From an uncultured Oscillospiraceae bacterium (GTDB taxonomy: Bacteria; Bacillota; Clostridia; Oscillospirales; Oscillospiraceae), in the NCBI GenBank assembly GCA_947624065.1, contig CANQIO010000014.1, forward strand, positions 1 to 35,666: a DNA stretch of 35,666 nt, given 5' to 3'. Made by a program: the position numbers and the translations under genes. Shown here piece by piece: positions 13,739-34,964 of this stretch (its first letter is position 1; each line of letters begins with the position of its first letter). The notes under the pieces were generated by a model. That model was not told the DNA's origin. It saw only the letters and a program-made list of their open reading frames with translations, and did no database searches.

Positions 13739-14962
13739 TCACACGGTGATCAGATAGGGGTGCTCCAGCAGATACTGCAGATCCCGGAACACATTGCCCA
13801 CCGCCTGACCGTCCACCACCTGGTGGTCGAAGGTCATATACATGTGCATCATGTCCCGCGGCGCCAGGGTCCCGTCCGGCATATACCGGGGCTTTCTCAC
13901 CGTCCGGCCGAAGCCGAAGATCGTCACCTCCGGCGCGTTCAGGATGGGGGTGGAGATGTCGATCGGGAACATGCCCACATTGGACACCGTGACGGTGCCG
14001 CAGCCCTGTTCGCCGGCCTGCAGGCGCTTTTCCCTGGCGCGGGCGCTCAGATCCTTGGCCGCCATGCTCAGCTGGGTCAGGGACAGGGTGTCGGCGTTTT
14101 TGATCACCGGGACCATCAGCCCGCCCTCCGTGGCCACGGCCAGCGACAGCTGCACATGGGCGTGGGAATAGAAGGTCTTTCCGTCAAAGGTGCCGTTGAG
14201 CAGCGGATATTTCTTCATCACCTTGCACACCGCGGCGCAGAGCAGGTCGTTCACCGTTATCCGGCAGCCCAGATATTCCTGGCTCTCCACCAGCTCCTGC
14301 CGCAGGGCCAGCAGGTCTGTCACATCCACCTCGCACACCGCCGAGCACTGGGCGGTCTGCTGGAGGCTTTGGAACATGTTCCTGGCGATGGTCTTGCGCA
14401 CGCCCGTCCAGGGGATGGCGGTGACCTCGTCCGCCGCGGGGACGGCGGCCTCCGCCGGCGCGGGCGCGGTGCTGCGCGCGTCCAGGTACGCGGTCACGTC
14501 CTTGGCGGTGATGCGCCGCCCATCGGGGCCGCCGCTGGCCGTCACCTCCGCCAGATCGATCCCCGCCTGGCGGGCCATCTTCCGGGCCAGGCCCGTGGCA
14601 CGAAAGTGCCGTCCGCCGATGCGGCCGGGCGTCTCCGGCACAGAGGCAGACACAGGCGCGGGCGCCTCCGCCGCCTGGGCCGCCGGAGCGGCAGGCGCGC
14701 CGCTCACCAGCTGGTCGTATTCCTCTTTCGTGTCGGTGACCACGGCGATGGGCGCGCCCACGGCCACCGTGTCGCCCACAGCGGCCAGGATGTGCAGATA
14801 TCCCCCGTGGACGGTCTCGTATTCGATGGTGTTCTTCTCGTTTTCGTATTCCATGATGGCCTGGCCTTTTTGGACCAGGTCCCCCTCGGCGGCCAGCCAC
14901 TGGCCGATGGTGCCCTCGATCATGGTCAGGCCGGCCTTGGGCATAACGATCTCAGTACGCAT
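13739..14962 (-). CDS. Dihydrolipoamide acyltransferase (E2), second complex
   Basis: E2 core of a 2-oxo-acid/acetoin-dehydrogenase-type complex. It moves the acyl group from the TPP enzyme to CoA on a lipoyl arm. The 407-residue product has a lipoyl domain (1-76) with the acceptor lysine at 43 in the motif ENEKNT, unlike the usual TDK context seen in the first E2 and the E3 here. A short Ala/Pro linker is followed by an E3/E1-binding domain (about 125-160, ATGLARKMARQAGID). The catalytic domain ends in DHQVVDG with the active histidine at 380 and Asp at 384. The ATG has GGAGA upstream. It is the last gene of the run, 20 bp after E1 beta. No E3 follows, so it probably shares the lipoyl-E3 at 18131. 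Confidence 0.9.
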   Translation of the reverse strand: MRTEIVMPKAGLTMIEGTIGQWLAAEGDLVQKGQAIMEYENEKNTIEYETVHGGYLHILAAVGDTVAVGAPIAVVTDTKEEYDQLVSGAPAAPAAQAAEAPAPVSASVPETPGRIGGRHFRATGLARKMARQAGIDLAEVTASGGPDGRRITAKDVTAYLDARSTAPAPAEAAVPAADEVTAIPWTGVRKTIARNMFQSLQQTAQCSAVCEVDVTDLLALRQELVESQEYLGCRITVNDLLCAAVCKVMKKYPLLNGTFDGKTFYSHAHVQLSLAVATEGGLMVPVIKNADTLSLTQLSMAAKDLSARAREKRLQAGEQGCGTVTVSNVGMFPIDISTPILNAPEVTIFGFGRTVRKPRYMPDGTLAPRDMMHMYMTFDHQVVDGQAVGNVFRDLQYLLEHPYLITV

Positions 14963-14982
14963 GGGTCCGTCTCCTTTCCCGC

Positions 14983-15963
14983 TCAGAGCGCGGCGCGGAC
15001 AGCCGCGCAGATGCGCTCCACGGAGGGGACGGCGGTCTTTTCCATGGGGATGTTGTAGGGCATGGGCACGTCCAGCGCCGCCACCCGCAGGATGGGGCCG
15101 TCCAACTCGTCATACTGCTCCTCCTGGAACCGGGCGGCCAGCTCCGCGCCCACGCCGGAGGTCTTGTTGCCCTCCTCCACGATGGCGGCGCGGTGGGTCT
15201 TGGCCAGAGACGCGTAGATGGTCTCCGTATCCAGCGGGGCGAGGGTGCGCGGGTCGATGACCTCCAGCTCGATGCCCTCCCGGGAGAGGATCTCCGCCGC
15301 CTCCAGCGCACGGGGCACCATCAGGCCGATGGCCACCACGGTCATGTCCCGGCCAGAGCGCTTCACGTCCGCCTTGCCGATGGGGATGGTGTAGTCGCTC
15401 TCGTAGAGCGCGTCGTCGATCTCCTGCTTGACCTGGTAAAGCTGCTTGGGCTCGCAGAACAGCACCGGGTTATCGGAACGGATGGCGCTCTTTAAAAGTC
15501 CCTTGGCGTCATAGGCGCAGCTGGGGGTGATGATCGTCAGGCCGGGCGCGTGCATAAACAGGCTCTCCGTCACGTTGGAGTGCTCCGCGCCGGCGCCGTT
15601 GGCGCAGCCCTCGGCGCAGCGGATGACCAGGGGCAGCTTGTACTCCGGGCCGTGCATATACCGCCACTTGCTGACCACGTGGAATATCTCCGTAAAGGCG
15701 ACCATGGTGAAGTCCGCGTACATCAGCTCCACGCAGGGGCGCAGGCCCGTCATGGCCGCGCCGGCGGCGGTGGCCACGATGGCGGTCTCCGCGATGGGGG
15801 TGTTGCGCACCCGCTTGGGGCCGAATTCCTCCAGCATCCCACGGGTGATGCCGAAGATGTTGCCGAACTGGGCCACATCCTCGCCGTAGATCAGCACCTT
15901 TTCATCCCGGCGCATCTCCTCCTTGAGGGCGTCGCCGATGGCCTTGGCATAGGTAACTTTCAT
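14983..15963 (-). CDS. TPP-dependent dehydrogenase E1 beta subunit, second complex
   Basis: Beta subunit of a heterotetrameric TPP-dependent E1 of the acetoin/2-oxo-acid dehydrogenase family. With E1 alpha it decarboxylates or cleaves the substrate and passes the acyl group to lipoyl-E2. The 326-residue product has the expected pattern: VLIYGEDVAQFGNIFGITRGM, RVRNTPIAETAIVATAAGAAM, AGAEHSNVTESLFMHAPGLTI, and the C-terminal transketolase domain (DMTVVAIGLMVPRALEAAE, EVIDPRTLAPLD). The TPP-facing glutamate is expected in the VRNTPIAE segment. The ATG follows AAGGAGG. It lies 19 bp after E1 alpha and 20 bp before E2. Substrate specificity cannot be read from the sequence. Confidence 0.92.
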   Translation of the reverse strand: MKVTYAKAIGDALKEEMRRDEKVLIYGEDVAQFGNIFGITRGMLEEFGPKRVRNTPIAETAIVATAAGAAMTGLRPCVELMYADFTMVAFTEIFHVVSKWRYMHGPEYKLPLVIRCAEGCANGAGAEHSNVTESLFMHAPGLTIITPSCAYDAKGLLKSAIRSDNPVLFCEPKQLYQVKQEIDDALYESDYTIPIGKADVKRSGRDMTVVAIGLMVPRALEAAEILSREGIELEVIDPRTLAPLDTETIYASLAKTHRAAIVEEGNKTSGVGAELAARFQEEQYDELDGPILRVAALDVPMPYNIPMEKTAVPSVERICAAVRAAL

Positions 15964-15982
15964 GGTCTTGCCTCCTTCCCGC

Positions 15983-16948
15983 TCACGCGTACAGCCCGTC
16001 GAAGATCTCCTCCGCCGTCATGGCGGGGGCAGCCTCCGCATGGGCGATGGCGGTCTCCATCTGTTCGTCGAACCCGGCGCGCATGGCGGCCAGCTCCGCT
16101 TCCGTGACCACGCCCTCCTTCAGGAGCATCGCCTCCAGGTTTTTCACGCAGTCATGGTTCTCTACCCATTCCTTGGTGACCTCGGCGTCCCGATAGGCGC
16201 ACTGGTCGCCCTCAAAGTGGCCGCGCCAGCGGTAGTCTTTGCACTCCAGCACCGCCGGGCCGTTTCCGGCGCGCACATAGTCGCTCATCTTCTTCGCCGC
16301 CCGGTATACGTCCAGCACATCGGTGCCGTCGGCCACCTCTGAGGGCATGCCGTAGCCCGCGGCCCGGTCCGCCAGCGCGTTGGGCACGGGGATGGTGCTG
16401 CTGGCGGGGGTGGAGATGGCGAAGCCGTTGTTCTCGCAGATGAACAGCACCGGCAGCTTCCAGGCCGCCGCCAGGTTCATGGCCTCGTACACGGGCCCCC
16501 GGCTGGAGGTGCCGTCGCCCATGAACATATAGGAGACGTTGGGCCGCTGCTCATAGTCGATGGTCAGCGCCGCGCCCACGGCCACGCCGGTATCGCAGCC
16601 CAGGGTGCCGGACATGCCCAGCACGCCCGTGCGCAGCTCGCCGATGTGCAGACTGCCGCCCCGGCCGCCGGAGTTGCCGGTCTTTTTGGCCAGCAGCTCG
16701 CCGAAGAACATGTCCAGATCCGTGCCCAGCATCCAGGGCATGGAGATGGGCCGGTGGGTCAGCTTGAAGTAATCCCCCGGCTGGCGGGTGGACAGCACGC
16801 CCACATAGGTGGCCTCCTGGCCCACGCCGCTGTGCACATGGCCGGGGACACGCCCCTGGGCGTACAGGTCGCAGAGCTTCTCCTCCAGCAGGCGGGTCTC
16901 CAGCAGGTCCTTGTGGATCTGCCTCAAAAATCGCGCTTCATATTGCAT
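15983..16948 (-). CDS. TPP-dependent dehydrogenase E1 alpha subunit, second complex (atypical active-site loop)
   Basis: Alpha subunit of the second TPP-dependent E1. The 321-residue product carries the TPP motif beginning MGDGTSSRG (about 164) and ending ICENNGFAIS, plus the Gly-rich GGRGGSLHIG segment. Where the first paralogue and typical AcoA/PDH subunits have THRGHGH, this one reads THRPISMPWML. That loop faces the substrate and phosphorylation-loop region in related E1 enzymes, so a changed substrate or mechanism is plausible. The ATG follows AAGGAG. The gene is 32 bp after the threonine-dehydrogenase-like gene and 19 bp before E1 beta. Confidence 0.9.
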   Translation of the reverse strand: MQYEARFLRQIHKDLLETRLLEEKLCDLYAQGRVPGHVHSGVGQEATYVGVLSTRQPGDYFKLTHRPISMPWMLGTDLDMFFGELLAKKTGNSGGRGGSLHIGELRTGVLGMSGTLGCDTGVAVGAALTIDYEQRPNVSYMFMGDGTSSRGPVYEAMNLAAAWKLPVLFICENNGFAISTPASSTIPVPNALADRAAGYGMPSEVADGTDVLDVYRAAKKMSDYVRAGNGPAVLECKDYRWRGHFEGDQCAYRDAEVTKEWVENHDCVKNLEAMLLKEGVVTEAELAAMRAGFDEQMETAIAHAEAAPAMTAEEIFDGLYA

Positions 16949-16980
16949 GATTGGCTCCTTCCAATATCGTTCCCGTGTGG

Positions 16981-18027
16981 TCAGGGCACCAGGATCATCT
17001 TGCCCGGCGCGCCGGACCGGATGGCCCCGATGGCCTTGTCGAAGTCCTCCAGGGGGTATACGCCCCCGATCACCGGCTCCAGGGAGAGGCCGGGGTCCCG
17101 CAGGATATCCATGCAGTCGTCCCAGGTCTCGAACATCCGCCGGCCGGAGATGCCCGTATAGGTGATCTCCCGATAGATGATGTCCTCGGTCAGGTCGATG
17201 GGGATCTCCCCATTGGGCAGGCCCACGGACACCAGGATGCCGCCCTTGCGCAGGCTCCGCAGACCGGAGACGATGGCCCGGCCGCTGCCGCTGATGTCGA
17301 TGGCGGCGTCCGCGCCGTGGCCCTCCGTGGCCGCCAGCACGGCCTTGATGACATCCTCCCTGCCGCTGTTGACGGTGATGTCCGCGCCCATGGTCCTGGC
17401 CAGGGCCAGCTTCTCGTCGAAGAGGTCGCAGGCGACGATCTTCGCCGCCCCGTGGACCCGGCAGGCGCCGATGGCCATCAGCCCGATGGGGCCGCAGCCG
17501 CTGACCAGGACGGTCTTGCCCTTCACGTCGGCCCGCTCCACCCCGTGCACGCCCGCGCCCATGGCCTCCAGCATGGCGCCCATCTCATAGCTGACGCCCT
17601 CCGCCAGGGGCACCGCGCAGCCGGCCGGCACCGGGGCGTACTCGGCGAAAGCCCCCGGCTCGGTGACGCCGAACAGCTTCATGTTCTCGCAGATGTGGGG
17701 ATTGCCCGTCCGGCAGGAAAAGCAATGCCCGCAGGGGATGTGGGTCTCCACGCTGATGCGGTCGCCCACCTTCAGGTCCGTGACGGCGGCGCCCACTCGC
17801 ACGATCTCGCCGGCCGTTTCATGGCCGAACACGATGGGCAGGTTCTTCATCCGGTTGGCCGCCCACTCGTTCCAGGCGAGGATGTGCATATCCGTGCCGC
17901 ACACGGCGGTGGCGTGCACCTTCATGAGCACCTCGTCGTCCTTTATCTCCGGGATGGGCAGGTCGGTGCGGTATTCATACCCGGGGCCGGCGCTCATCTT
18001 GCATATGCCGCGCATGGCAGCCTGCAT
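16981..18027 (-). CDS. tdh: Zinc-dependent L-threonine 3-dehydrogenase-type enzyme
   Basis: Medium-chain zinc alcohol dehydrogenase most similar to L-threonine 3-dehydrogenase, which oxidises the 3-hydroxyl of threonine with NAD. The 348-residue product has catalytic-zinc residues C43, H69 and E70 (AVCGTDMHI, GHETAG) and structural-zinc cysteines 99, 102, 105 and 113. A Rossmann motif follows (VLVSGCGPIGLMAIG). The TDH-like patterns CGTDMHILAWNEW and GRRMFETWDD point to this subfamily rather than to a simple alcohol dehydrogenase. No 2-amino-3-ketobutyrate CoA ligase (kbl) is in the window, so another hydroxy acid or a 2,3-diol is an open alternative. The ATG follows GGAGAG. It leads the second dehydrogenase set and follows a terminator-like hairpin. 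Confidence 0.8.
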   Translation of the reverse strand: MQAAMRGICKMSAGPGYEYRTDLPIPEIKDDEVLMKVHATAVCGTDMHILAWNEWAANRMKNLPIVFGHETAGEIVRVGAAVTDLKVGDRISVETHIPCGHCFSCRTGNPHICENMKLFGVTEPGAFAEYAPVPAGCAVPLAEGVSYEMGAMLEAMGAGVHGVERADVKGKTVLVSGCGPIGLMAIGACRVHGAAKIVACDLFDEKLALARTMGADITVNSGREDVIKAVLAATEGHGADAAIDISGSGRAIVSGLRSLRKGGILVSVGLPNGEIPIDLTEDIIYREITYTGISGRRMFETWDDCMDILRDPGLSLEPVIGGVYPLEDFDKAIGAIRSGAPGKMILVP

Positions 18028-18085
18028 GGTATCGCTCTCCTCTCTATGCTCTCAGCCTTTCGGCCGGAATGCTCCGAATTTAGAA

Positions 18086-18119
18086 GAAGGGCCCGAAGGT
18101 TTCGCGCTTCGGGCCCTTC
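18086..18119 (-). terminator. Terminator-like hairpin between E3 and tdh
   Basis: A perfect 13-bp stem (18086-18098 with 18107-18119, core GGGCCC) with an 8-base loop lies just after the E3 stop. On the minus strand it is followed by TTCTAAATT, a weak T-tract. It may end most transcripts of the first set or set the ratio of the two sets. I found no convincing promoter between it and tdh. Confidence 0.7.
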
Positions 18120-18130
18120 CGAACGGATGT

Positions 18131-19897
18131 TTACTTATTGGGGGTGTGGATGGCGCGCTTTTCCGCGTGCAGCGCCGCCTCCCGCAGCGTCTCGGTGACG
18201 GTGGGGTGGCTGTGGATGGTGGCGATGATCTCGTCCAGGGTCATCTCCTCGCCGATGGCCAGCGCGCCCTCGGCGATCAGGTCCGTGGCTCTGGGCCCGA
18301 TGATGTGCATGCCCAGGATCTCGCCGTACTCCTTGCCGGCGATGATCTTCACCAGGCCCTCGCCGCCGTTGATGATCAGGGCTTTGCCGTTGGCGCTCAT
18401 GGGGAACTTGCCGACCTTATAGTCCAGGCCCTTGGCCTTGCACTGTTCCTCGGTCAGACCCACGGACGCCGCCTCCGGCTCGATGTACACGCAGGTGGGG
18501 TTGGTCTTTTCATCGTAGAGCGCGTCGATGCCCATGATGTTCTCGGCCGCCACCTCGCCCATGGCGGAGGCGGTGTGGGCCAGTTGGGCGTGGCCCAGCA
18601 CGCAGTCGCCGATGGCGTACACGCCCGGCACGCTGGTCTGCATCCGATCGTTGACCACGATGCGGCCCCGGTCGTTCTCGAGCTTGCCGGCCTCCAGGTC
18701 CAGGCTGGCGGTATTGGCCCGGCGGCCGATGGCCACCAGCACCTTCTCCGCCTCGAAGGAGACAATCTCGCCGGCCTTATTCTTGCAGACCACCTTGGCG
18801 CCCACGGGGGAGGGCTCCACGGACTGCACCGGGCACTCCAGATTGAACTCCATGCCCATCTTCTTCATGTGCTGCACGCCGATCTTGGTCAGGTCGCCGT
18901 CCAGCATGGGCAGCATGTGGTCCAGCGCCTCCACCACCGTGATCTTGGTGCCGAAGGCCGCGTAGGCGCAGGCCAGCTCCAGGCCGATGACGCCGCCGCC
19001 GATGACCACCATGCTCTTGGGCAGCTTCTCCAGGCTCAGGGCCCCGGTGGAGTCGATGCAGTTGGGGTTCTCCTTCAGGCCGGGGATGGGAGGCGTGGCG
19101 TTGACGGAGCCCGTGGCCACGATGATGCCGTCGGCGGTCATGGTCTCGGAAGAGCCGTCCGCCTTTTTGACAGACAGCTTGCCGGGGCCCACGAACTTGG
19201 CCTCGCCGTCCACGACCTTGACCTTGTTCATTTTCAGCAGGCCGGCCACGCCGCCGGTGAGCTTCTTGGAGATGTCGTTCTTATGCTTGATGATCTGGGG
19301 GAAGTTGATGCTGACGCCGGATACCTCGACACCGATCTCCTTTCCCTGGTTTTTGATGTCCTCCACCAGCTCCGCGCTGTGCAGCAGGCACTTGGTGGGG
19401 ATGCAGCCGATGTTCAGGCAGGTGCCGCCCAGGTGCTCGCGCTCGATGAGGGTCACCTTCGCGCCCAGCTGCGCCGCCCGGATGGCGGCCACATAGCCGC
19501 CGGGGCCGCCGCCCACCACGATGACGCTCGCGTCGCCGGCGGGCTTTGCCGGGGCGGGAGGCACGGGGGCTGCCGCCTTGGGGGCGAGGGCAGGAGCGGG
19601 CGCCGGGGCCTTGGGAGCAGGCGCGGCGGCGGGGGCGGCCGGGCCGCCCGCCTTCTCGCCGGGCTGGCCGATGTAGGCCAGCAGGCCCTTCACGGGCACG
19701 TCCTCGTCCTCGTGGGCCACGATCTTCAAGAGCACGCCGTCATGCTCGCTATTGAGCTCGTTGGTCAGCTTGTCGGTGGTGATCTCCACCAGCGGCTCGC
19801 CCGCCTTCACGGCGTCGCCCTCCTTTTTCAGCCACTTGGAGACGGTGCCCTCCTCCATGGTCAAACCCAGCTGGGGCATCAGTACTTCGAAAGCCAT
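18131..19897 (-). CDS. lpdA: Dihydrolipoamide dehydrogenase (E3) with N-terminal lipoyl domain
   Basis: E3 flavoprotein that reoxidises dihydrolipoyl arms and reduces NAD. The 588 residues are longer than a plain E3 (about 460-475) because of an N-terminal lipoyl domain (1-80, acceptor lysine 43 in TTDKLTNE) and an Ala/Pro linker to about 122. The FAD motif (VIVVGGGPGGYVAAI) begins near 125. The redox disulfide is C160 and C165 (GGTCLNIGCIPTK), and the C-terminal base pair is H564/E569 (HSHPTVTE). This layout is known from AcoL-type E3 enzymes of acetoin dehydrogenase systems in Clostridia and related bacteria. The lipoyl domain is nearly identical in style to that of the adjacent E2. The ATG follows GGGAGG, 16 bp after E2. 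It is the only E3 in the window. Confidence 0.95.
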   Translation of the reverse strand: MAFEVLMPQLGLTMEEGTVSKWLKKEGDAVKAGEPLVEITTDKLTNELNSEHDGVLLKIVAHEDEDVPVKGLLAYIGQPGEKAGGPAAPAAAPAPKAPAPAPALAPKAAAPVPPAPAKPAGDASVIVVGGGPGGYVAAIRAAQLGAKVTLIEREHLGGTCLNIGCIPTKCLLHSAELVEDIKNQGKEIGVEVSGVSINFPQIIKHKNDISKKLTGGVAGLLKMNKVKVVDGEAKFVGPGKLSVKKADGSSETMTADGIIVATGSVNATPPIPGLKENPNCIDSTGALSLEKLPKSMVVIGGGVIGLELACAYAAFGTKITVVEALDHMLPMLDGDLTKIGVQHMKKMGMEFNLECPVQSVEPSPVGAKVVCKNKAGEIVSFEAEKVLVAIGRRANTASLDLEAGKLENDRGRIVVNDRMQTSVPGVYAIGDCVLGHAQLAHTASAMGEVAAENIMGIDALYDEKTNPTCVYIEPEAASVGLTEEQCKAKGLDYKVGKFPMSANGKALIINGGEGLVKIIAGKEYGEILGMHIIGPRATDLIAEGALAIGEEMTLDEIIATIHSHPTVTETLREAALHAEKRAIHTPNK

Positions 19898-19913
19898 TTG
19901 CCGTGTCCTCCCG

Positions 19914-21158
19914 TTACAGTACGATGCTCATGGGGCTCTGGAGCAGATCCCGCAGAGCCATCTGGAACTTGGCGACGACCGCGCCGTCCAGCAGCCGGTG
20001 GTCCAGCGTCACGCTCAGGCGCATGACCTTGCGCACGGTGACCGCGCCGGCGTCGTCCAGGGCCAGCTCGTCCTGGATCGCGCACACGCCCAGGATGGCC
20101 GCGTCGGGCTGGTTGATGATGGGGGTAAAGGTCTCGATGCCGAACATGCCCAGGTTGGACACGGTGAAGGTAGAGCCCTTGTACTCCTCCGGCAGCAGCT
20201 TGTTGGTCTTGGCCCGCTCGGCCAGGTCCTTGGCCGCCGCGCTCAGCGCGTCCAGGCCCAGCTTATCCGCGTCCCGGATGACCGGCACGATGAGCCCGGC
20301 GTCCAGCGCCACGGCCACGCCCAGGTTGACGTGGGCCCGCTGGATGATCTGGTCGCCGTCGAAGGCCACCAGCATCTCGGGATGCTGGCTCAGGCACTTG
20401 GCCGTGGCCTTGAGCACCAGGTCGTTGACGGAATACTTCTTGCCGGTGGTCTCCAGCAGCATCTTGCGGAACTTCATCAGTTCGGTGACGTCCACCTTGA
20501 TGTTCTGGGTCACGGGCGGGATCTCGGTGTGGGACTGGAGCATCCGCTCGGCCACCACCTTGCGCATGCCGGTCAGCTTCACCACGGTGTCGCCCTCCAT
20601 CAGCTCCAGACGGCCGGCGGGCGCCTTGGGCGGCACGGGCGGCTTGGGGCCGGGTGCGGGAGCGGGAGCCGGGGCAGCGGGGGCTGCGGCGGCGGCCAGG
20701 ATGTCCTTGAGCACGATGCGGCCGGAGGGGCCGGTGCCGGCGATGCCGGTATAGTCCACGCCCATCTTGGCCGCGGTCTTGCGGGCCAGGGGGCTGATGC
20801 GGATGCGCTTGCCACCCACAGCGGCAGGCGCCGGTGCAGGCGCAGCGGCAGCCGCAGGAGCGGCGGGGGCCGCCTCGGCAGCGGGGGCGGGAACAGCGGG
20901 GGCGTCGCCCACGGCCTCGCCGGGCTGGCCGATGTAAGCCAGCAGGCCCTTGACGGGGATGTCCTCCCCCTCCTGGGCCACGATCTTCAAAAGCACGCCC
21001 TCAAACTCGCTCTCGATCTCGTTTGTGAGCTTGTCGGTGGTGATCTCGGCGATGGGGTCGCCCACCTTCACGGCGTCGCCCTCATGCTTGAGCCAGGCGG
21101 AGACGGTGCCCTCCTCCATGGTCAGGCCCAGCTGGGGCATCAATACTTCATGTGCCAT
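19914..21158 (-). CDS. Dihydrolipoamide acyltransferase (E2), first complex
   Basis: E2 core of the first acetoin/2-oxo-acid-dehydrogenase-type complex, making acyl-CoA. The 414-residue product has a lipoyl domain with the acceptor lysine at 43 (TTDKLTNE), and its first 20 residues closely match those of the neighbouring E3 lipoyl domain. An Ala/Pro linker leads to the E3/E1-binding domain (about 116-155, RISPLARKTAAKMGVDYTG). The catalytic domain ends in DHRLLDG, with H387 and D391. The ATG follows GGGAGGG. It lies 15 bp after E1 beta and 16 bp before E3. The family resembles AcoC, but acetoin specificity is not proved. Confidence 0.93.
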   Translation of the reverse strand: MAHEVLMPQLGLTMEEGTVSAWLKHEGDAVKVGDPIAEITTDKLTNEIESEFEGVLLKIVAQEGEDIPVKGLLAYIGQPGEAVGDAPAVPAPAAEAAPAAPAAAAAPAPAPAAVGGKRIRISPLARKTAAKMGVDYTGIAGTGPSGRIVLKDILAAAAAPAAPAPAPAPGPKPPVPPKAPAGRLELMEGDTVVKLTGMRKVVAERMLQSHTEIPPVTQNIKVDVTELMKFRKMLLETTGKKYSVNDLVLKATAKCLSQHPEMLVAFDGDQIIQRAHVNLGVAVALDAGLIVPVIRDADKLGLDALSAAAKDLAERAKTNKLLPEEYKGSTFTVSNLGMFGIETFTPIINQPDAAILGVCAIQDELALDDAGAVTVRKVMRLSVTLDHRLLDGAVVAKFQMALRDLLQSPMSIVL

Positions 21159-21173
21159 GTGTCAGACCCTCCC

Positions 21174-22154
21174 TTACTTGTTCAGGACGTGCTTGACGGC
21201 CTTGGCAATGGTCTCGGGGTGGGGGAAGTTCTCGTCCTCCAGCACGGGGCTGAAGGGGGAGACGATGTTCAGCCCGCACAGACGCTCCACAGGGGCGTCC
21301 AGCTCGTCGAACAGCTCCTCGGCGATCTGGGCGGAGAGCTCGCCGGCGTAGCTGCCGCGCTTGACCTCCTCGGACACGATCAGCACATTGTGGGTCTTGC
21401 TGACGGACGCGGCGATGGCCTCCCAATCCAGGGGCACCAGGCTCCGCAGATCCAGCACCTCCACGTCGATGCCCTCGGCGGCCAGGTTTTCGGCGGCCTC
21501 CATGGCGAAGTTCACCTGGCGGCTCCAGGTGATGAGGGTGAGGTCCTTGCCCTCGCGCTTGACCTTGGCCTTGCCCAGGGGGATCAGGTACTCCTCCTCG
21601 GGGATCTCTTCCTTCTTGGCGTACAGCAGCTTGTTCTCCAGGCTGACGACAGGGTCGTCGTCCCGGATGGCGCTCTTGATCAGGCCCTTGGCGTCCTCAG
21701 CGCAGCTGGGGGCTATCACTTTCAGGCCGGGGAAGTGGCAGAACAGCGCTTCCAGGGACTGGGAGTGGTGGCCGGCGTTGCGGCGGCCGGCGCCCATGGG
21801 GCAGCGCAGCACCATGGGAACGGTGGCCTGACCGCCGGTCATGTAACGGGTCTTGGCGGCCTGGTTGAAGATGGGGTCAGCGGCCACGGTGATGAAGTCG
21901 TTGTACATCAGCTCCACCACGGGACGCAGCCCGCGCATAGCCGCACCCACGGCCATGCCGCAGAAGCCCTCCTCGGAGATGGGGGTATCGATGACGCGGT
22001 TGGGGCCGAACTCATCCAGAAAGCCGGTGGTAACGCCGAACACGTTGCCCATCACGGCCATGTCCTCACCGATGATGAAGACGTTCTCGTCGCGAACCAT
22101 TTCCTCATGCAGGCCCTCGCGCAGAGCCTTGCTGAAGGTGATCTTCTTGCTCAT
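21174..22154 (-). CDS. TPP-dependent dehydrogenase E1 beta subunit, first complex
   Basis: Beta subunit of the first TPP-dependent E1 (AcoB/PdhB-like). From the ATG at 22152-22154 the product is 326 residues, the same length as its paralogue at 14983. That start overlaps the E1 alpha stop as ATGA and has GGAGAG just before it, so it is preferred over the ATG at 22166. Conserved features are FIIGEDMAVMGNVFGVT, NRVIDTPISEEGFCGMAVG, GRRNAGHHSQSLEALFCHFPG and VLDLRSLVPLDWEAI. The HHSQS loop is close to acetoin- and pyruvate-type beta subunits. It works with E1 alpha at 22151 and feeds E2 at 19914. Confidence 0.95.
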   Translation of the reverse strand: MSKKITFSKALREGLHEEMVRDENVFIIGEDMAVMGNVFGVTTGFLDEFGPNRVIDTPISEEGFCGMAVGAAMRGLRPVVELMYNDFITVAADPIFNQAAKTRYMTGGQATVPMVLRCPMGAGRRNAGHHSQSLEALFCHFPGLKVIAPSCAEDAKGLIKSAIRDDDPVVSLENKLLYAKKEEIPEEEYLIPLGKAKVKREGKDLTLITWSRQVNFAMEAAENLAAEGIDVEVLDLRSLVPLDWEAIAASVSKTHNVLIVSEEVKRGSYAGELSAQIAEELFDELDAPVERLCGLNIVSPFSPVLEDENFPHPETIAKAVKHVLNK

Positions 22155-23161
22155 CTCTCCACACACCTTTCATTATCCATGGCGTACACATCGGTCGTGA
22201 CCTCGGCCAGATCGGGATAGGGGGACTCGTCGGCGAACTTGACGGCGGCGTCCATCTCGGCCTTGGCCTCGTCCTTGATCTTCTGCAGCTCTTCCTCGGT
22301 GGCGCCGGCGGCCAGCAGCTTCTTGCCCAGCTTCTCGATGGGGTCGTTTGCCAGCGCCTTCTCCATGTACTCGGCGGGACGGTACACCGCCGGGTCGCCG
22401 CAGTAATGGCCCTGATAGCGGTAGACCTTCGCCTCCAGCACGTAGGGGCCCTTGCCGGAACGGGCGTGGTCCATGGCCTTGCACATAGCCTCGTACACCG
22501 CCAGCACGTCGGTGCCGTCCACCACGGCATAATCCACGCCATAGGCGGCCGCGCGGGTGGCCAGGTCGGGGGTGTTGGTGACGCGGTGGATCTCGGTGGA
22601 GACGCCGTAGCAATTGTTCTCGATGAACCACACCAGCGGCAGCTTCCAGGTGGCGGCCATGTTCAGGTTCTCATGGAAGGTGCCCTCGTTGGTGGAGCCG
22701 TCGCCGAAGCAGCCCACGGTGACGGAATTGTCGCCCTTGATCTTGGAGGCCAGCGCGGAGCCGGCGGAGATGCCCTGGCCGGCGCCCACGATGCCGTTGG
22801 CGCCCAGGTGGTTGGCCTTGGACATGTCGGTGATGTGCATGGAGCCGCCCTTGCCCTGGCAGTAGCCGGTCTTTTTGCCGAACAGCTCCGCCATGGCCAT
22901 GTTGGGGTCCATGCCCCGGGCGATGGCGTGGCCGTGGCCCCGGTGGGTGGAGGTGAAGAAGTCCTGGGGCTGGATGGCGGCGAAAGCGCCCGCCGCCGCG
23001 GCCTCCTGGCCGATGCTCAGGTGGATGTTGCCCGCCAGCATGCCCTTGGTGAAGCACTCCGCCGCGTGCTCCTCGAACTCCCGGACGCGGCACATCGTGC
23101 GATAGAACCCGAGCAGCTGCTCTTTGGAATACTTTTCAGTGGTCTTTTTCTTCGTAGCCAA
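22151..23161 (-). CDS. TPP-dependent dehydrogenase E1 alpha subunit, first complex
   Basis: Alpha subunit of the first TPP-dependent E1 (AcoA/PdhA-like), which binds TPP and starts the cleavage. The 336-residue product has all canonical elements: THRGHGHAIARG (about 85-96), GKGGSMHI, the TPP motif GDGSTNEGTFHENLN to ENNCYGVST, and YRYQGHYCGDP. The start is TTG at 23159-23161 with a modest AAAGGCG upstream. The next in-frame ATG would lie within the conserved helix (MCRVREFEEH), so TTG is favoured. It follows the PPC-domain gene by 47 bp and overlaps E1 beta by 4 bp. Confidence 0.94.
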   Translation of the reverse strand: MATKKKTTEKYSKEQLLGFYRTMCRVREFEEHAAECFTKGMLAGNIHLSIGQEAAAAGAFAAIQPQDFFTSTHRGHGHAIARGMDPNMAMAELFGKKTGYCQGKGGSMHITDMSKANHLGANGIVGAGQGISAGSALASKIKGDNSVTVGCFGDGSTNEGTFHENLNMAATWKLPLVWFIENNCYGVSTEIHRVTNTPDLATRAAAYGVDYAVVDGTDVLAVYEAMCKAMDHARSGKGPYVLEAKVYRYQGHYCGDPAVYRPAEYMEKALANDPIEKLGKKLLAAGATEEELQKIKDEAKAEMDAAVKFADESPYPDLAEVTTDVYAMDNERCVER

Positions 23162-23208
23162 AGTCTATCACGCCTTTCTAAAATATTGATGCGATCTATT
23201 TTGTGGCC

Positions 23209-23685
23209 TCACTCCTGCCGGGGAGCAAAGAGGGGGACCTCCAATTCGTTGTCAAATTTGCGGCCCATTACCAGGCCGGCCAGCTCCGCGATCACCACAT
23301 CCACGGTGAGCAGCACCTTCGTGCCCTCCACCAGATGGCCGCCGTGGGCGTTGCCGTGGCGGTCGCTGAGGCTGATATGTACGTGCAGGTTGGTGTTTCC
23401 CTCGTCGTCGTGGCAGATGATGCCGGCGGCGCTGGTCAGTTCGATGGGGCCGGTCAGGTGCAGCACCTCGCCGTAGCCATAGCCGGCCTTCTTCTCCGGC
23501 AGCTCCACGGGGTTGCAGAACTTCACCCCGTCCAGGCTCCCGATGGCGCTGAGAATGACGCCGTTGTTGATGCCGTAGCGCCGGCAGGCCTCCTCCAGGC
23601 CCAGGAGAACGTCCGTCCCCGGACGGAGCCGGATGGCGACCACACGCTTGAGGGTGCCCTCCGCGGTTTCCATAATATCGCTCAT
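23209..23685 (-). CDS. PPC (DUF296) domain protein
   Basis: Protein of the PPC/DUF296 family, found alone in bacteria and with AT-hooks in plants; the bacterial function is not settled. From the ATG at 23683-23685 (AAGGAGAGG upstream) the product has 158 residues, rather than 175 from the earlier ATG. It shows the domain pattern RLRPGTDVLLGLEEACRRYG, SAIGSLDGV, and a HVHISLSDRHGN...GGHLVEGT metal-binding motif in which histidines cluster. There is no DNA-binding hook. It sits between the TRAP transporter and E1 alpha on the same strand, so a role as regulator, sensor or small-molecule binder for this pathway is plausible, but this is only context. Confidence 0.88.
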   Translation of the reverse strand: MSDIMETAEGTLKRVVAIRLRPGTDVLLGLEEACRRYGINNGVILSAIGSLDGVKFCNPVELPEKKAGYGYGEVLHLTGPIELTSAAGIICHDDEGNTNLHVHISLSDRHGNAHGGHLVEGTKVLLTVDVVIAELAGLVMGRKFDNELEVPLFAPRQE

Positions 23686-23736
23686 AATACCTCTCCTTAT
23701 CTGATTTCGGCATTTCTGCCGGCATTTTGGGCGCAA

Positions 23737-23780
23737 AAGAGAACACGTGGCGACATTTCTGCCGCCACGTGCTTTCTCTT
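23737..23780 (-). terminator. Hairpin after dctP
   Basis: CACGTGGCG (23744-23752) pairs with CGCCACGTG (23763-23771), and the outer AAGAGA/TCTCTT arms add six pairs across an internal loop. On the minus strand it is followed by CTTTT-rich sequence. It probably reduces read-through from the TRAP genes into the PPC/dehydrogenase genes, giving more transporter than enzyme transcript. Confidence 0.65.
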
Positions 23781-23851
23781 CAACGCAACCGAAAGTTGGT
23801 ATCAGGGAAGTTTAACTCGTGATTGCGGCTATTGGATTGAAACGGTAAGGA

Positions 23852-24868
23852 TTACTCCGCGGCCTCTTCCACGGGGGCGGTGAAGGCGTCGATCAGATCC
23901 TGGCCGATGATGTCGGCGAACTCCTCATAGCAGGGAGCGGCGACTTCACGGAACTCCTCGGCGGCCTCTTCGGTCAGCTCGGTGACCTCAACGCCAGCCT
24001 CTTCCCACTTGGCCAGCACTTCCTGGTCGCCCTCACGCTCCAGGACACGCTGATTCTGGGCAGCCTTCAGGCCGCACTCGTCAACGATCTGCTGCAGCTC
24101 GGGGGACAGGGAGTTGTACAGGTCCAGGTTCATGGTGAAGAAGATGCAGTCATAAACGCCGGTCCAGTAGGTGACGTACTTCTGCACTTCCTGGATGGAG
24201 GCGCCGTCAGCGGTGGGCAGGGGGTTCTCCTGGCCGTCGTAGGTGCCGGTCTGCAGGCCGGTGTAGACCTCGGACCAGTTGGCGTTGGCATAGTTGGCGC
24301 CCCACAGCTCATACTCGCGGTTCAGCAGGTCGGAGCCGGCGACACGGATCTTCAGGCCAGCCATATCGTCAACGCAGGTGATGGGACGGACGCTGTTGGT
24401 GACATGCCGGAAGCCGTTCTCGGCGATGCCCAGCAGATGCAGGCCCATGCTCTCCACGATCTCGCCCACGGCCTTGCCGGCCTCGCCGTCCAGCTTGGCA
24501 TCGACATCCTCGAAGGAGCTGAACAGGAAGGGCAGGGAGACGACGTTCAGGCGCTGATCAAAGCTGGAGTAAATGATGTTGGAGTGGGCGGACAGGTCGA
24601 TGGTGCCGTCCATAACGCCCTGGATGCCTTCGGTCTGGTTGCCGGCGGTCAGCTGGTCGGCAGCGTAGACGGTGACGGTGACGGCGCCGCCGGTGGCGTC
24701 GCTGACCATCTGGCCGAAATCGTTGCCCATCTGGGCCCAGCAGGTGTTCTCGGTGGCGGAGCAGGTGTAGGACCAGTTCATCTCCTCGAACTCGCCGTCG
24801 GCGAACGCGGGGGCGCTCAGGCTCAGGACCATGACCAGGGCCAGAGCAAGGGTGAGAAGCTTCTTCAT
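23852..24868 (-). CDS. TRAP transporter solute-binding protein (DctP family)
   Basis: Extracytoplasmic solute receptor of a tripartite (TRAP) transporter, which captures a ligand and hands it to the membrane subunits. The 338-residue product starts with a signal peptide (MKKLLTLALALVMVLSLSAP, cleavage after FADG or ALA-like FA near 23). It keeps the DctP arginine in GLKIRVAGSDLL (about residues 172-180), which in the family binds a carboxylate of the ligand. Hence the imported compound probably has a carboxylate. The mature sequence is Glu-rich at the C-terminus. The ATG follows AAGGAGG. It comes last in the Q-M-P order, 80 bp after dctM, and leads into the PPC and dehydrogenase genes. Confidence 0.93.
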   Translation of the reverse strand: MKKLLTLALALVMVLSLSAPAFADGEFEEMNWSYTCSATENTCWAQMGNDFGQMVSDATGGAVTVTVYAADQLTAGNQTEGIQGVMDGTIDLSAHSNIIYSSFDQRLNVVSLPFLFSSFEDVDAKLDGEAGKAVGEIVESMGLHLLGIAENGFRHVTNSVRPITCVDDMAGLKIRVAGSDLLNREYELWGANYANANWSEVYTGLQTGTYDGQENPLPTADGASIQEVQKYVTYWTGVYDCIFFTMNLDLYNSLSPELQQIVDECGLKAAQNQRVLEREGDQEVLAKWEEAGVEVTELTEEAAEEFREVAAPCYEEFADIIGQDLIDAFTAPVEEAAE

Positions 24869-24948
24869 GGGTAATGTTTCCTCCTTAAAAAATTGTTTGC
24901 GTTTCTTATCTGAAACCGCTCGCGCGGCGACAGAACAGGTTTACAGGC

Positions 24949-26268
24949 TTACTTGAACAGCAGCACCGTGGAGAAGAAGGGCACGTAGGTGACGATGAGC
25001 AGCGTGACGACGCAGGCCACGATCATGGGCCAGACCGCCTTGGAGATGCTCATGATGTTCACCTTTGTCTTGTCCCTGATGTCCTGGAGCTTTTCCGACA
25101 GGCCGATGGCCACGAACAGGTTCACGCCCACGGGCGGGGTCACCTGACCGATGGCCAGGTTCACGGTGGAGAGCACGCCGAAGTGGATGGGGTTGATGCC
25201 CAGCTGGGTGGCCACGGGGTACATGATGGGGATGAAGATGTACATGGCGGAGTTGGCGTCCACGAAGCAGCCGGCGATCAGGAAGATGACGTTGACCACG
25301 ATCAGGAAGATGTACTTGTTGCCGGAGATGTTCAGCAGCAGGGACTGGGCCGCCTTGGAGATGCCGAACACGGTGCAGCTGTAGGAGAACAGGGTGGCCG
25401 CGCCGATGATCAGCATGATGCTGGCGGTGCTCTTGCCGGAGTCCACCAGGATGGCGTACAGGTCCTTGAGCTTGACCTCCCGGTAGATGACGATGCCCAC
25501 GAACAGGCCGTAGATCACGGACACGGCCGCGGCCTCGGTCGGGGTGAAGAAGCCGCCGTAGATGCCGCCCAGGATGATGACGGGCATCAGGAAGCCCCAG
25601 AAGGCGGTGCGGAAGCTCTTCCACCGCTCGCCCCAGGAGGCCTTCTCCCGGGACGCGGGCAGACCCTTGCGCCGGACCTCGATCATGATGATGACCACCA
25701 GGGCCAGGCCCATCATGATGCCGGGGAGGATGCCGCCCATGAACATGTCGCCCACGGACACGCCGGTGATGGAGGCGTAGACCACGAACGCGATGGACGG
25801 CGGTATGACGATAGCGATGGACGACGCCGTGGCCATCATGGCCGAGGAGAAGGGGGCGGAGAAGCCGCCGCGGTTGATCATGGCGGGGATCAGGATGATG
25901 CCCAGGGCCGCCACGGTGGCCGGGCCGGAGCCGGAGATGGCGCCGAAGAAGCAGGCCACCACCACGCACACGATGGCGATGCCGCCCCGCCGGTGGCCGA
26001 TGCAGTCGTCGATGAACTGGACCAGCCGCGTGGAGATGCCCGCCTTGGCCATGATGTTGCCGCTCAGTACGAAGAAGGGGATGGCCAGCAGCAGGAACTT
26101 GGCCATGCCGTTATAGAAGTTGGAGGAGATGATGCTCATGACCTGGGGCACGCCGAACTTGCCAGAATAGAAGATGGCGGAGATGGCGGACACGCCCAGG
26201 CTGACGCCGATGGGGACGTTCAGGAACAGCAGGATGAAGAAGGTGCCGAACAGGATAAAGTTGATCAT
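24949..26268 (-). CDS. TRAP transporter large permease (DctM family)
   Basis: Large membrane subunit of the TRAP transporter, which moves the ligand using an ion (often sodium) gradient. The 439-residue product is made of about 12 hydrophobic segments with the DctM signature patterns: GVSLGVSAISAIFYSG near the start, FLLLAIPFFVLSGNIM, ACFFGAISGSGPATVAALG and APFSSAMMATASS. The last helices contain GQVTPPVGVNLFVAIGL. It overlaps dctQ by 4 bp (ATGA-type). Length and topology are normal. Together with dctQ and dctP it forms a complete transporter. Confidence 0.95.
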   Translation of the reverse strand: MINFILFGTFFILLFLNVPIGVSLGVSAISAIFYSGKFGVPQVMSIISSNFYNGMAKFLLLAIPFFVLSGNIMAKAGISTRLVQFIDDCIGHRRGGIAIVCVVVACFFGAISGSGPATVAALGIILIPAMINRGGFSAPFSSAMMATASSIAIVIPPSIAFVVYASITGVSVGDMFMGGILPGIMMGLALVVIIMIEVRRKGLPASREKASWGERWKSFRTAFWGFLMPVIILGGIYGGFFTPTEAAAVSVIYGLFVGIVIYREVKLKDLYAILVDSGKSTASIMLIIGAATLFSYSCTVFGISKAAQSLLLNISGNKYIFLIVVNVIFLIAGCFVDANSAMYIFIPIMYPVATQLGINPIHFGVLSTVNLAIGQVTPPVGVNLFVAIGLSEKLQDIRDKTKVNIMSISKAVWPMIVACVVTLLIVTYVPFFSTVLLFK

Positions 26269-26774
26269 TTGTCCTGGCCTCCTTCCTCAAGCTCAGGCTT
26301 CGCAGCCAAAAAATCGATACAGTACTCCACCGTATGCAGCAGCAGCAGCACCGCGCCGATGGGCAGGAAGATCTGGAACACCCACTCCGGCCAGCGCAGC
26401 GAAGAGGTGAGCTTGCCGTTGTTCATGACGGTGATGACCTTGTCATAACCGGCCTTGAGGATGAATGCCCAGAAAACGCAGTCGGCCACCGTGCAGATGA
26501 TGACCAGCACCTTCTGGCCCTTCCTCTTGAGGCGGTCGAATACCAGCGAGAGGGTGATGAGGCCGCCCTCGCGGACACACAGGGCGCAGCCGAGCATGAT
26601 CAGCAGCACGAACAGGTTGATGACCAGCTCCTCCGTCCAGGCGAACTGACTGGTGGTCAGCTTACGTACTACGACGTTGACGAAGGTGATCACGGTGACG
26701 AACACCAGAACGAGGCTCATGACGATCTTCTCGATCTCGGCGATCACATCCATGATCTTTTTGTAGACTTTCAT
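26265..26774 (-). CDS. TRAP transporter small permease (DctQ family)
   Basis: Small four-helix membrane subunit of the TRAP transporter. The 169-residue product has membrane segments near 18-38, 50-70, 92-110 and 128-150. It has the family sequence VRKLTTSQFAWTEELVINLFV around the first periplasmic loop. The start at 26772-26774 is preceded by AAGGGATTG, and a six-codon upstream ORF (from the ATG at 26792) overlaps it as ATGA. It is the first gene of the 13-kb minus-strand run, so the promoter should lie between 26775 and 26900. No clear sigma-A match was found there on this strand. Confidence 0.92.
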   Translation of the reverse strand: MKVYKKIMDVIAEIEKIVMSLVLVFVTVITFVNVVVRKLTTSQFAWTEELVINLFVLLIMLGCALCVREGGLITLSLVFDRLKRKGQKVLVIICTVADCVFWAFILKAGYDKVITVMNNGKLTSSLRWPEWVFQIFLPIGAVLLLLHTVEYCIDFLAAKPELEEGGQDK

Positions 26775-29591: not shown

Positions 29592-29603
29592 TTGGTATTA
29601 CCA
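29592..29603. promoter_or_regulatory. GntR autoregulatory operator
   Basis: TTGGTATTACCA contains TGGT-N3-ACCA and touches the -10 box of the GntR gene. It has the same position relative to the promoter as the lplA dyad. Confidence 0.75.
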
Positions 29604-34888: not shown

Positions 34889-34912
34889 TTTGTCTCTCCT
34901 TTCCGGACGCCG

Positions 34913-34944
34913 GCAAAGAGACAGGCGGATGCCTGCCTCTTTGC
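34913..34944 (-). terminator. Terminator-like hairpin after the substrate-binding protein gene
   Basis: Arms at 34913-34926 and 34931-34944 pair over 14 bp around a 4-base loop. The single mismatch becomes a G-U pair on the minus strand, so the RNA is probably made in that direction. The T-tract is within the stem (CTCTTTGC), so efficiency is uncertain. Confidence 0.65.
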
Positions 34945-34964
34945 GCGATCAATAGATATGTTTC

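What the first reader, a model, noticed from the sequence alone, without database searches (positions are those of the whole stretch)
13739..26774. A 13-kb catabolic island: TRAP importer, PPC protein, threonine-dehydrogenase-type enzyme and two acetoin-dehydrogenase-type complexes
Twelve minus-strand genes run without interruption: dctQ, dctM, dctP, PPC/DUF296, E1 alpha, E1 beta, E2, lipoyl-E3, TDH-like, then a second E1 alpha, E1 beta and E2. Known acetoin dehydrogenase operons have one set and no TRAP transporter or TDH. The DctP arginine (GLKIRVAG) implies a carboxylate ligand; TDH enzymes oxidise a 3-hydroxyl of an acid; AcoABC-type complexes cleave a keto-hydroxy compound to an acyl-CoA plus an aldehyde. 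A hypothesis is import of a hydroxylated acid, oxidation to a 3-oxo or acyloin-type acid, and TPP/lipoate cleavage to acyl-CoA. The substrate is unknown. This is my main candidate for an undescribed system.
Basis: partly seen in the sequence, partly recalled or inferred. Interest (0 to 1): 0.78.

Follow-up and report, generated by a model that had tools for sequence, protein, structure and literature searches.

The report
Gut-bacterial island for eating small acids
A rare but conserved gene island in gut bacteria appears to import a small hydroxy- or oxo-acid and cut it into acetyl-CoA-type units with two unusual relatives of the acetoin/pyruvate dehydrogenase machines; what it eats is not known.

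Summary
In detail: twelve minus-strand genes (DctQ, DctM, DctP, PPC, E1a/E1b/E2, lipoyl-E3, TDH-like, a second E1a/E1b/E2) lie at 13739-26774. All twelve recur in the same order in three other loci, one of them the isolate Oscillibacter sp. 1-3, and rearranged in Eubacterium pyruvativorans i6. It is rare (E1a of complex 2 in 5 of 35 genus and 5 of 400 family genomes, own included). Neither complex is a plain acetoin dehydrogenase: each E1a is its own clade, and complex 2 has E1b EHSN in 33 of 33 loci. DctP's best-scoring solved relative is 4p8b, whose ligand I recall as (S)-2-acetolactate. Best reading: import of a small 2-hydroxy-3-oxo or 2,3-dihydroxy acid, optional oxidation by the TDH-like enzyme, acyloin-type cleavage by complex 2 to acetyl-CoA plus a 2-oxo acid, and complex 1 acting on a second oxo substrate. 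No substrate is shown. New variant of a known kind.

The parts
29700..30419 (-). SdpI-like membrane protein, upstream neighbour
   Evidence: Pfam SdpI match just under cut-off (27.6 of 28.2 bits); beside the FCD regulator in L047, L048, L111, L112 too
29593..29603 (.). TGGTATTACCA operator-like site next to a promoter-like -10 (29631-29603) before the regulator gene
   Evidence: 0.34 sites expected per window in shuffles
28888..29577 (-). GntR/FCD-family regulator
   Evidence: Pfam GntR + FCD; 68-69% identical next to lplA in L111 and L112
28753..28763 (.). TGGTATGACCA (minus strand) operator-like site 44 bp upstream of lplA
   Evidence: a site lies in the gap after the regulator gene in 7 of 7 loci with an orthologue of this regulator, and in 0 of 5 loci with another FCD gene
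27714..28709 (-). lipoate-protein ligase LplA
   Evidence: Pfam LplA-B_cat + Lip_prot_lig_C; no lipA over cut-off in 6 of 6 genomes
26898..27611 (+). MBL-fold hydrolase, opposite strand; probable member
   Evidence: Pfam Lactamase_B_2 just under cut-off (26.2 of 27 bits); 51-53% identical and likewise inverted between lplA and dctQ in L111 and L112; only 28% identical to the MBL that stands beside PPC in L074
26265..26774 (-). DctQ, TRAP small permease
24949..26268 (-). DctM, TRAP large permease
23852..24868 (-). DctP, TRAP solute-binding protein; best-scoring PDB match 4p8b by sequence and by Foldseek E-value
23742..23773 (-). hairpin with T-rich tail between DctP and PPC (possible attenuator)
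   Evidence: consensus scan only
23209..23685 (-). PPC/PCC-domain protein with invariant HxH...H
   Evidence: H101, H103, H117 invariant in 14 of 14
22151..23161 (-). complex 1 E1 alpha
21174..22154 (-). complex 1 E1 beta
19914..21158 (-). complex 1 E2 (lipoyl, E3-binding, acyltransferase)
18131..19897 (-). E3 with N-terminal lipoyl domain; the only E3 in the island
16981..18027 (-). TDH-like zinc dehydrogenase
15983..16948 (-). complex 2 E1 alpha, loop GHFEGDQ
14983..15963 (-). complex 2 E1 beta, motif EHSN
13739..14962 (-). complex 2 E2

Best explanation
An inducible catabolic island for a small (about C4-C5) hydroxy/oxo carboxylic acid. Steps: (1) an FCD regulator acting at TGGT-N3-ACCA sites controls lplA and its own gene (inferred from site positions). 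(2) DctPQM imports the acid (family shown, ligand inferred). (3) Where the acid is reduced, the TDH-like enzyme oxidises its 3-hydroxyl, giving a 2-hydroxy-3-oxo acid of the acetolactate type (inferred); in genomes without TDH the oxo acid is taken up as such. (4) Complex 2 (E1a2/E1b2/E2_2 with the shared E3) adds TPP to the 3-oxo group, splits C2-C3 and passes the acyl group to lipoate and CoA, giving acetyl-CoA plus a 2-oxo acid and NADH (inferred). (5) Complex 1, with PPC and perhaps MBL as helpers of unknown chemistry, converts a second oxo substrate, plausibly the released 2-oxo acid, to another acyl-CoA (inferred). LplA charges the lipoyl domains with scavenged lipoate (supported by gene content).
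For: Gene order conserved in L046, L070 and L071, and both complexes + TRAP + TDH + PPC + MBL together in E. pyruvativorans. Importers near complex 2: DctM in 15 of 33 loci, an ABC binding protein in 5 of 33, against about 4% by chance for DctM. Swapped dehydrogenases: TDH, HIBDH-type or SDR in 18 of 33. DctP: 4p8b is rank 1 by sequence and by Foldseek E-value and shares 13 of 14 post-hoc positions with the window DctP, against 5 of 14 for 4p47 at similar overall identity. PMC5812351 (passages) lists 2-acetolactate among TRAP ligands found by Vetting 2015. E1a2 loop GHFEGD is shared with 4 of 4 acetoin-context E1a and not with 7 of 7 E1a beside PTS or oxidoreductase genes (GHS[KR]SD) or human PDH (GHSMSD). 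PMC12247030 (passages): an acetoin-dehydrogenase E1 uses methylacetoin, a tertiary-alcohol acyloin, as donor and transfers only acetyl or propionyl units. Pyruvate:ferredoxin oxidoreductase is over cut-off in 6 of 6 genomes, so a plain pyruvate dehydrogenase is not needed. The island holds the only two E2 genes found in the window's draft genome, no lipA passes the cut-off in 6 of 6, catalytic motifs are intact. Operator-like sites lie after the regulator gene in 7 of 7 loci with this regulator (two of them near-identical).
Against: No substrate, expression or activity data. The 4p8b ligand is recalled; the tool's title was cut before it. By TM-score 4p47 (0.86/0.90) and the isethionate protein 8t9t (0.85/0.93) fit the DctP model better than 4p8b (0.79/0.84). 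The 14 positions were picked after seeing 4p8b. DctP relatives with these residues sit in alphaproteobacteria beside acyl-CoA synthetase, thiolase and SDR genes, which suits a 3-hydroxy acid handled as a CoA ester. Both E1b pass the NCBIfam cut-off of a PDH E1-beta subfamily (390 and 352 against 321 bits). The loop argument is seed-biased for complex 2 (searched with HFEGDQC), and three loci of the other kinds (L105, L107, L109) carry an E2 that is named acetoin dehydrogenase E2 too. No TGGT-N3-ACCA site precedes dctQ in the window. Complex 1 alone, with another TRAP and an HIBDH-type gene, forms a system in Vescimonas, so the two complexes need not be sequential. PPC and MBL have no role in the scheme.
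Confidence: 0.36

Rival explanations
1. Both complexes are 2-oxo-acid dehydrogenases (for example for branched-chain or C4 2-oxo acids) that make acyl-CoA and NADH, and the TRAP imports 2-oxo or 2-hydroxy acids; TDH is an accessory hydroxyacid dehydrogenase.
For: Both E1b pass a PDH E1-beta subfamily cut-off, and complex 1 E1a scores 359 bits with the PDH E1a model TIGR03182, under its cut-off of 394. Complex 1 keeps E1b HHSQ/QHSQ. E. pyruvativorans carries both complexes and Oscillibacter valericigenes complex 2; their names speak of pyruvate and valerate.
Against: Neither E1a passes the PDH cut-off; complex 2 lost HSQ and GHGH; PFOR is present in 6 of 6 genomes; dehydrogenases of three families that act on hydroxyls are swapped in.
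Confidence: 0.28
2. A threonine or aminoketone pathway: TDH makes 2-amino-3-oxobutyrate from L-threonine and complex 2 cleaves it to acetyl-CoA and glyoxylate imine, replacing KBL.
For: TDH active-site segments, zinc ligands and the GISGR..ETW region resemble 2d8a; KBL is not found over cut-off in 6 of 6 genomes, some of them incomplete drafts.
Against: The TDH score is under the equivalog cut-offs (353 against 458 and 350 against 380 bits); the TRAP would import an amino acid, unusual for DctP; complex 2 also occurs without an adjacent TDH (L043, L047, L048); no TPP cleavage of an aminoketone acid is known to me.
Confidence: 0.1
3. Classical 2,3-butanediol/acetoin catabolism with the TDH-like gene as butanediol dehydrogenase.
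For: Complex 2 shares the GHFEGD loop with acetoin-context E1a; zinc butanediol dehydrogenases are in the same superfamily (recalled).
Against: Acetoin and butanediol are uncharged and need no carboxylate-type TRAP (inference); nearest solved relatives are threonine dehydrogenases; no AcoX gene or alpha/beta-hydrolase E2 is seen in the island; the E1a clades are apart from two acetoin-context AcoAs. Clostridial AcoAs were not in the tree.
Confidence: 0.1
4. A chance or assembly-made neighbourhood: two unrelated operons joined in a draft genome.
For: The window is a whole contig of a draft genome, and the near relative G026 has two internal deletions.
Against: Same order in L046, L070 and L071, the last from an isolate on a 1.3-Mb contig.
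Confidence: 0.02

Closest known systems
Acetoin dehydrogenase operons (acoABCL, with acoX/acoR)
   Same: E1a/E1b/E2/E3 set; E3 with lipoyl domain and neighbouring lplA recall clostridial aco operons (recalled); complex 2 E1a loop GHFEGD as in 4 of 4 acetoin-context loci
   Different: two complexes, one E3, TRAP importer, TDH-like enzyme, PPC, FCD regulator; both E1a outside the two AcoAs in the tree; complex 2 E1b EHSN in place of QHSQ
L-threonine 3-dehydrogenase (TIGR00692; 2d8a)
   Same: zinc-ligand residues and active-site segments; best solved relatives
   Different: below the equivalog cut-offs, no KBL over cut-off in 6 of 6 genomes, dispensable or swapped
TRAP binding protein 4p8b, Ralstonia eutropha H16_A1328 (ligand recalled as (S)-2-acetolactate)
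   Same: top match by sequence and Foldseek E-value, 13 of 14 chosen residues
   Different: about 32% identity; other solved proteins have higher TM-scores; ligand of the window protein untested
Vescimonas fastidiosa pMM35_01 locus (TRAP, HIBDH-type, MBL, PPC, E1a, E1b, E2, E3, LplA)
   Same: orthologous complex 1, PPC, E3 and LplA (68-83% identity), FCD regulator (52%) with the same operator-like site
   Different: one complex, other DctP (28%), other dehydrogenase; annotated generically

Membership tests
Acetoin dehydrogenase complex | E1a, E1b, E2 and E3 encoded together | tested here: met
Acetoin dehydrogenase complex | E1a inside the AcoA clade | tested here: not met
   separate 100/100 clades for complex 1 and complex 2; only two AcoA references, no clostridial one, and long branches
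Acetoin dehydrogenase complex | AcoA-like loop GHFEGD | tested here: inconclusive
   complex 2 has it, complex 1 has GHYCGD; seed bias for complex 2
Acetoin dehydrogenase complex | activity on acetoin | not testable with these tools
   needs enzyme assay
Pyruvate dehydrogenase complex | E1a over the PDH equivalog cut-off | tested here: not met
   359 and 264 bits against 393.85 for TIGR03182
Pyruvate dehydrogenase complex | E1b over the PDH E1-beta subfamily cut-off | tested here: met
   390 and 352 bits against 321 for NF006667; both under the equivalog NF008854 cut-off of 454
Pyruvate dehydrogenase complex | activity on pyruvate | not testable with these tools
   needs enzyme assay
L-threonine 3-dehydrogenase | equivalog score | tested here: not met
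   353.1 of 458.35 and 350.3 of 380 bits
L-threonine 3-dehydrogenase | catalytic and structural zinc ligands | tested here: met
   C43, H69, E70, C99, C102, C105, C113 invariant in 14 of 14; ligand roles recalled
L-threonine 3-dehydrogenase | KBL partner in the genome | tested here: not met
   0 of 6 genomes over cut-off, weak matches in 2
DctP-family TRAP transporter | DctP, DctQ and DctM together, ligand arginine | tested here: met
Acetolactate-type TRAP binding protein (4p8b) | residues shared with 4p8b | tested here: inconclusive
   13 of 14 positions, chosen after the fact, pocket location not checked; ligand recalled
FCD/PdhR-type regulon | TGGT-N3-ACCA sites by regulator and target genes | tested here: met
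   after the regulator gene in 7 of 7 loci with this regulator, 0 of 5 with other FCD genes, 2 of 27 remaining loci have a stray site; consensus recalled; binding not tested

The most novel reading that the evidence does not exclude
Complex 2 is a lipoate-coupled oxidative reversal of acetohydroxyacid synthase: it cleaves imported or TDH-made 2-acetolactate-type acids (2-hydroxy-3-oxo acids) into acetyl-CoA and a 2-oxo acid, which complex 1 turns into a second acyl-CoA, so one imported C5 acid gives two acyl-CoA and NADH in strict anaerobes. I know of no described member of such an enzyme class; the paper searches showed none by title and abstract.
Probability: 0.17. Interest if true: 0.75.

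Novelty: new variant of a known kind. Interest (0 to 1): 0.55.

Why it matters
If the reading holds, gut Oscillospiraceae and Eubacterium pyruvativorans share an undescribed route from an unidentified acid to acyl-CoA, using a new E1 subfamily with its own motif. It would add a substrate class to the 2-oxo-acid/acetoin dehydrogenase family, explain why anaerobes that own PFOR and lack a recognisable lipoate synthase carry these complexes and a lipoate ligase, and give markers (E1b EHSN, the PPC gene) for finding the trait in metagenomes.

Tried and rejected
Acetoin or butanediol as the plain answer: rejected as best reading because of the TRAP importer, separate E1a clades and E1b motif. Threonine catabolism through KBL: rejected, no KBL over cut-off in 6 of 6 genomes. 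Plain pyruvate dehydrogenase: disfavoured, PFOR in 6 of 6. TDH as an obligatory step: rejected (L043). Chance neighbourhood: rejected. Rfam found nothing at its gathering scores in the window. A first DctP model from 10 sequences was poor (pLDDT 49); conclusions use the second, from 16 (88.6). Two of my motif counts were faulty: one search read the wrong GH in the reference E1a proteins, and its E1a1 count returned none for 6 sequences because of a wrong expression; the loop readings used are. In one search one reference (Sphingobium L106) gave no loop, and Roseateles (GHARMD), Shinella and Rubrobacter (EHSEGL) and Natrinema (GHYEGD) fit neither group. What I call acetoin-context rests on AcoX-like or butanediol-dehydrogenase neighbours (L100, L101, L103) or similarity to L100 (L104), not on the E2 name, which also occurs in L105, L107 and L109. 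In one search the ORF picker dropped E1a2 of L071, which one search shows present (80%). Dropped before counts: L073 (28% identity) from the 33-locus neighbour and motif counts; E1 fragments under 250 aa. Papers: searches found none; two found no paper on this system by listing; others gave listings, from which PMC5812351 and PMC12247030 were seen as passages; no paper was read whole.
Full report
Where it is. The window is one whole contig (C14, 35,666 bases) of a draft genome of 1.92 Mb in 81 contigs, 75% complete. Its near relatives are Oscillospiraceae drafts named Lapin (rabbit, by name). That G026 is CANQOA010000001.1 rests on contig length 173,794 and place.

Observation. The twelve genes are there, on the minus strand, with gaps from -4 to 166 bp. 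Catalytic motifs are intact: GDG in both E1a, lipoyl lysines in both E2 and in E3, HxxxDG in both E2, GGTCxxxxC in E3, and the zinc ligands of the TDH-like enzyme. The two complexes are distant paralogues: E1a 38%, E1b 49%, E2 35% identical. There is one E3, and its lipoyl domain is 83% identical to that of complex 1's E2.

The unit is larger. In Oscillibacter sp. 1-3 (L111 with L071) and in the L070 genome (L112), the order is SdpI-like, FCD regulator, LplA, MBL hydrolase on the other strand, DctQ, DctM, DctP, PPC, complex 1, E3, TDH, complex 2. The window has the same order from 30,419 down to 13,739. In Eubacterium pyruvativorans i6 (L113 with L067) the order is MBL, PPC, complex 1, E3, DctQ, DctM, DctP, a gene without a Pfam match, TDH, complex 2, a second E3. 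In the human isolate Vescimonas fastidiosa a compact form has an FCD gene, another DctPQM, an HIBDH-type gene, MBL, PPC, complex 1, E3 and LplA. So PPC, with an MBL of the Vescimonas type, often goes with complex 1, but PPC also stands beside complex 2 alone in several loci (L051, L053, L056, L057). The window's MBL is only 28% identical to the Vescimonas one, so its role is less sure.

Regulation. TGGT-N3-ACCA, which I recall as the box of PdhR/FadR-type FCD regulators, occurs twice in the window (0.34 expected): just upstream of the regulator gene and 44 bp upstream of lplA. I looked at 39 loci (window, L040-L074, L111-L113; some from the same genome). In 7 of 7 with an orthologue of the window regulator (52% identity or more: window, L040, L047, L048, L074, L111, L112; L040 is nearly the window itself) a site lies in the gap between the regulator and the next gene; 0 of 5 with another FCD gene (L052, L056, L058, L066, L068) have a site; 2 of the 27 others have a stray one (L043, L059). 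L047 and L074 have a second site, by MBL and by the regulator gene. In 14 loci a first-order model expects 3.0 sites and 10 are seen, so position more than number is the evidence. There is none before dctQ in the window.

Distribution. The complex-2 E1a is found in 5 of 35 genomes of the genus at E <= 1e-30, own genome included, and in 5 of 400 sampled genomes of the family at E <= 1e-90, own included. The PPC profile finds 2 of 394 sampled genomes of the order at E <= 1e-25, own included. A named scan gave 34 loci, 33 of them complex 2, in Oscillospiraceae, Anaerotignum, Eubacterium pyruvativorans, a Lachnospiraceae draft and a few other Clostridia drafts. Of these 33, DctM lies in 15, PPC in 13, TDH in 13, an FCD gene in 8, complex 1 E1a in 6 (over 60% identity), an ABC binding protein in 5, an HIBDH-type gene in 4, an SDR in 4, LplA in 4 and MBL in 4; many loci are cut by contig ends, and some marks may be unrelated genes (the SDR of L043 lies beyond the island).

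Complexes. In a 38-row E1a tree complex 1 (with Vescimonas) and complex 2 are separate 100/100 clades, outside the pair of acetoin-context AcoAs; the tool warns of long branches. Complex 2 has EHSN in E1b where the others aligned have HSQ, HSK, HSD or HAD, in 33 of 33 loci, lacks in E1a the GHGH that follows HR in most others, and has the loop R[WF]RGHFEGDQ in 32 of 32 (seed-biased). The loop GHFEGD recurs in 4 of 4 acetoin-context E1a (L100, L101, L103, L104), while 7 of 7 E1a beside PTS or oxidoreductase genes (L075, L097, L102, L105, L107, L108, L110) have GHS[KR]SD. Against this, E2 genes of L105, L107 and L109 bear the name acetoin dehydrogenase E2 as well, and both window E1b pass a PDH E1-beta subfamily cut-off. 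I take the loop as a lead that complex 2 cleaves acyloins. PFOR is in 6 of 6 genomes, and the island holds the only two E2 genes found in the window's genome.

Importer. DctP's best solved relative is 4p8b by sequence and by Foldseek E-value (model pLDDT 88.6); by TM-score 4p47 and the isethionate protein 8t9t fit better, which may reflect open and closed forms. Fourteen positions that I chose because they looked shared are kept in 10 of 10 close orthologues (window included), 13 of 14 in 4p8b, 13-14 in three alphaproteobacterial proteins, 5-8 in seven others, and 10 and 8 in L049 and L055. I recall that 4p8b holds (S)-2-acetolactate; the tool cut the title. A review confirms only that 2-acetolactate was one of the TRAP ligands found in that study (PMC5812351, passages).

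Dehydrogenase. The TDH-like protein is closest to threonine dehydrogenases but under the equivalog cut-offs. It is missing from L043 and, as a close copy, from its draft genome, and from L047 and L048 beside the same type of DctP; the L047 and L048 genomes have 41% and 39% relatives elsewhere. So the imported acid can probably be used without it.

How it works. Putting these together, import of a 2-hydroxy-3-oxo or 2,3-dihydroxy acid, its oxidation if needed, TPP/lipoate cleavage by complex 2 and further use by complex 1 is the most economical scheme. The use of methylacetoin as donor by an acetoin-dehydrogenase E1 (PMC12247030, passages) shows that tertiary-alcohol acyloins are within reach of this chemistry. 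Everything after gene content is inference.

Limits. No growth or expression data; the ligand clue rests on recall; reference E1a proteins are few; several genomes are incomplete drafts, so absences are weak; paper searches covered open-licence papers only.

Noticed in passing
L040 (G026), junctions at L040:6687 and L040:7269: A near relative has the same locus but lacks window 22171-26661 and 19682-21587, so most of DctQ, DctM, DctP, PPC, E1a1, part of E1b1, E2_1 and the start of E3 are missing; a decayed island or an assembly fault.
   Followed up: partly
L075, L102, L105, L107, L108, L110: In alphaproteobacterial plasmids E1a/E1b/E2 sets stand next to an 'NAD(P)H-dependent oxidoreductase' (named homoserine dehydrogenase in L107), several beside PTS or ABC genes; perhaps acyloin cleavage of a deoxyketose phosphate.
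   Followed up: partly
L059-L064: In Anaerotignum and kin complex 2 has its own E3; five of six loci hold a sigma-54 activator and five of six an ABC binding protein, and none a TRAP.
   Followed up: partly
L031-L033 (G015): One draft carries two complex-2 copies and a third, separate complex near a TRAP and, by eye only, SDR-like and transaldolase-like genes.
   Followed up: no
L049, L052, L055-L064, L032: Many complex-2 E2 proteins are about 520 aa; in L032 the sequence shows two lipoyl-type repeats.
   Followed up: no
window 33737-35663: A 2-hydroxyacyl-CoA-dehydratase-type subunit and an NMT1-like binding protein that runs towards the contig end.
   Followed up: no
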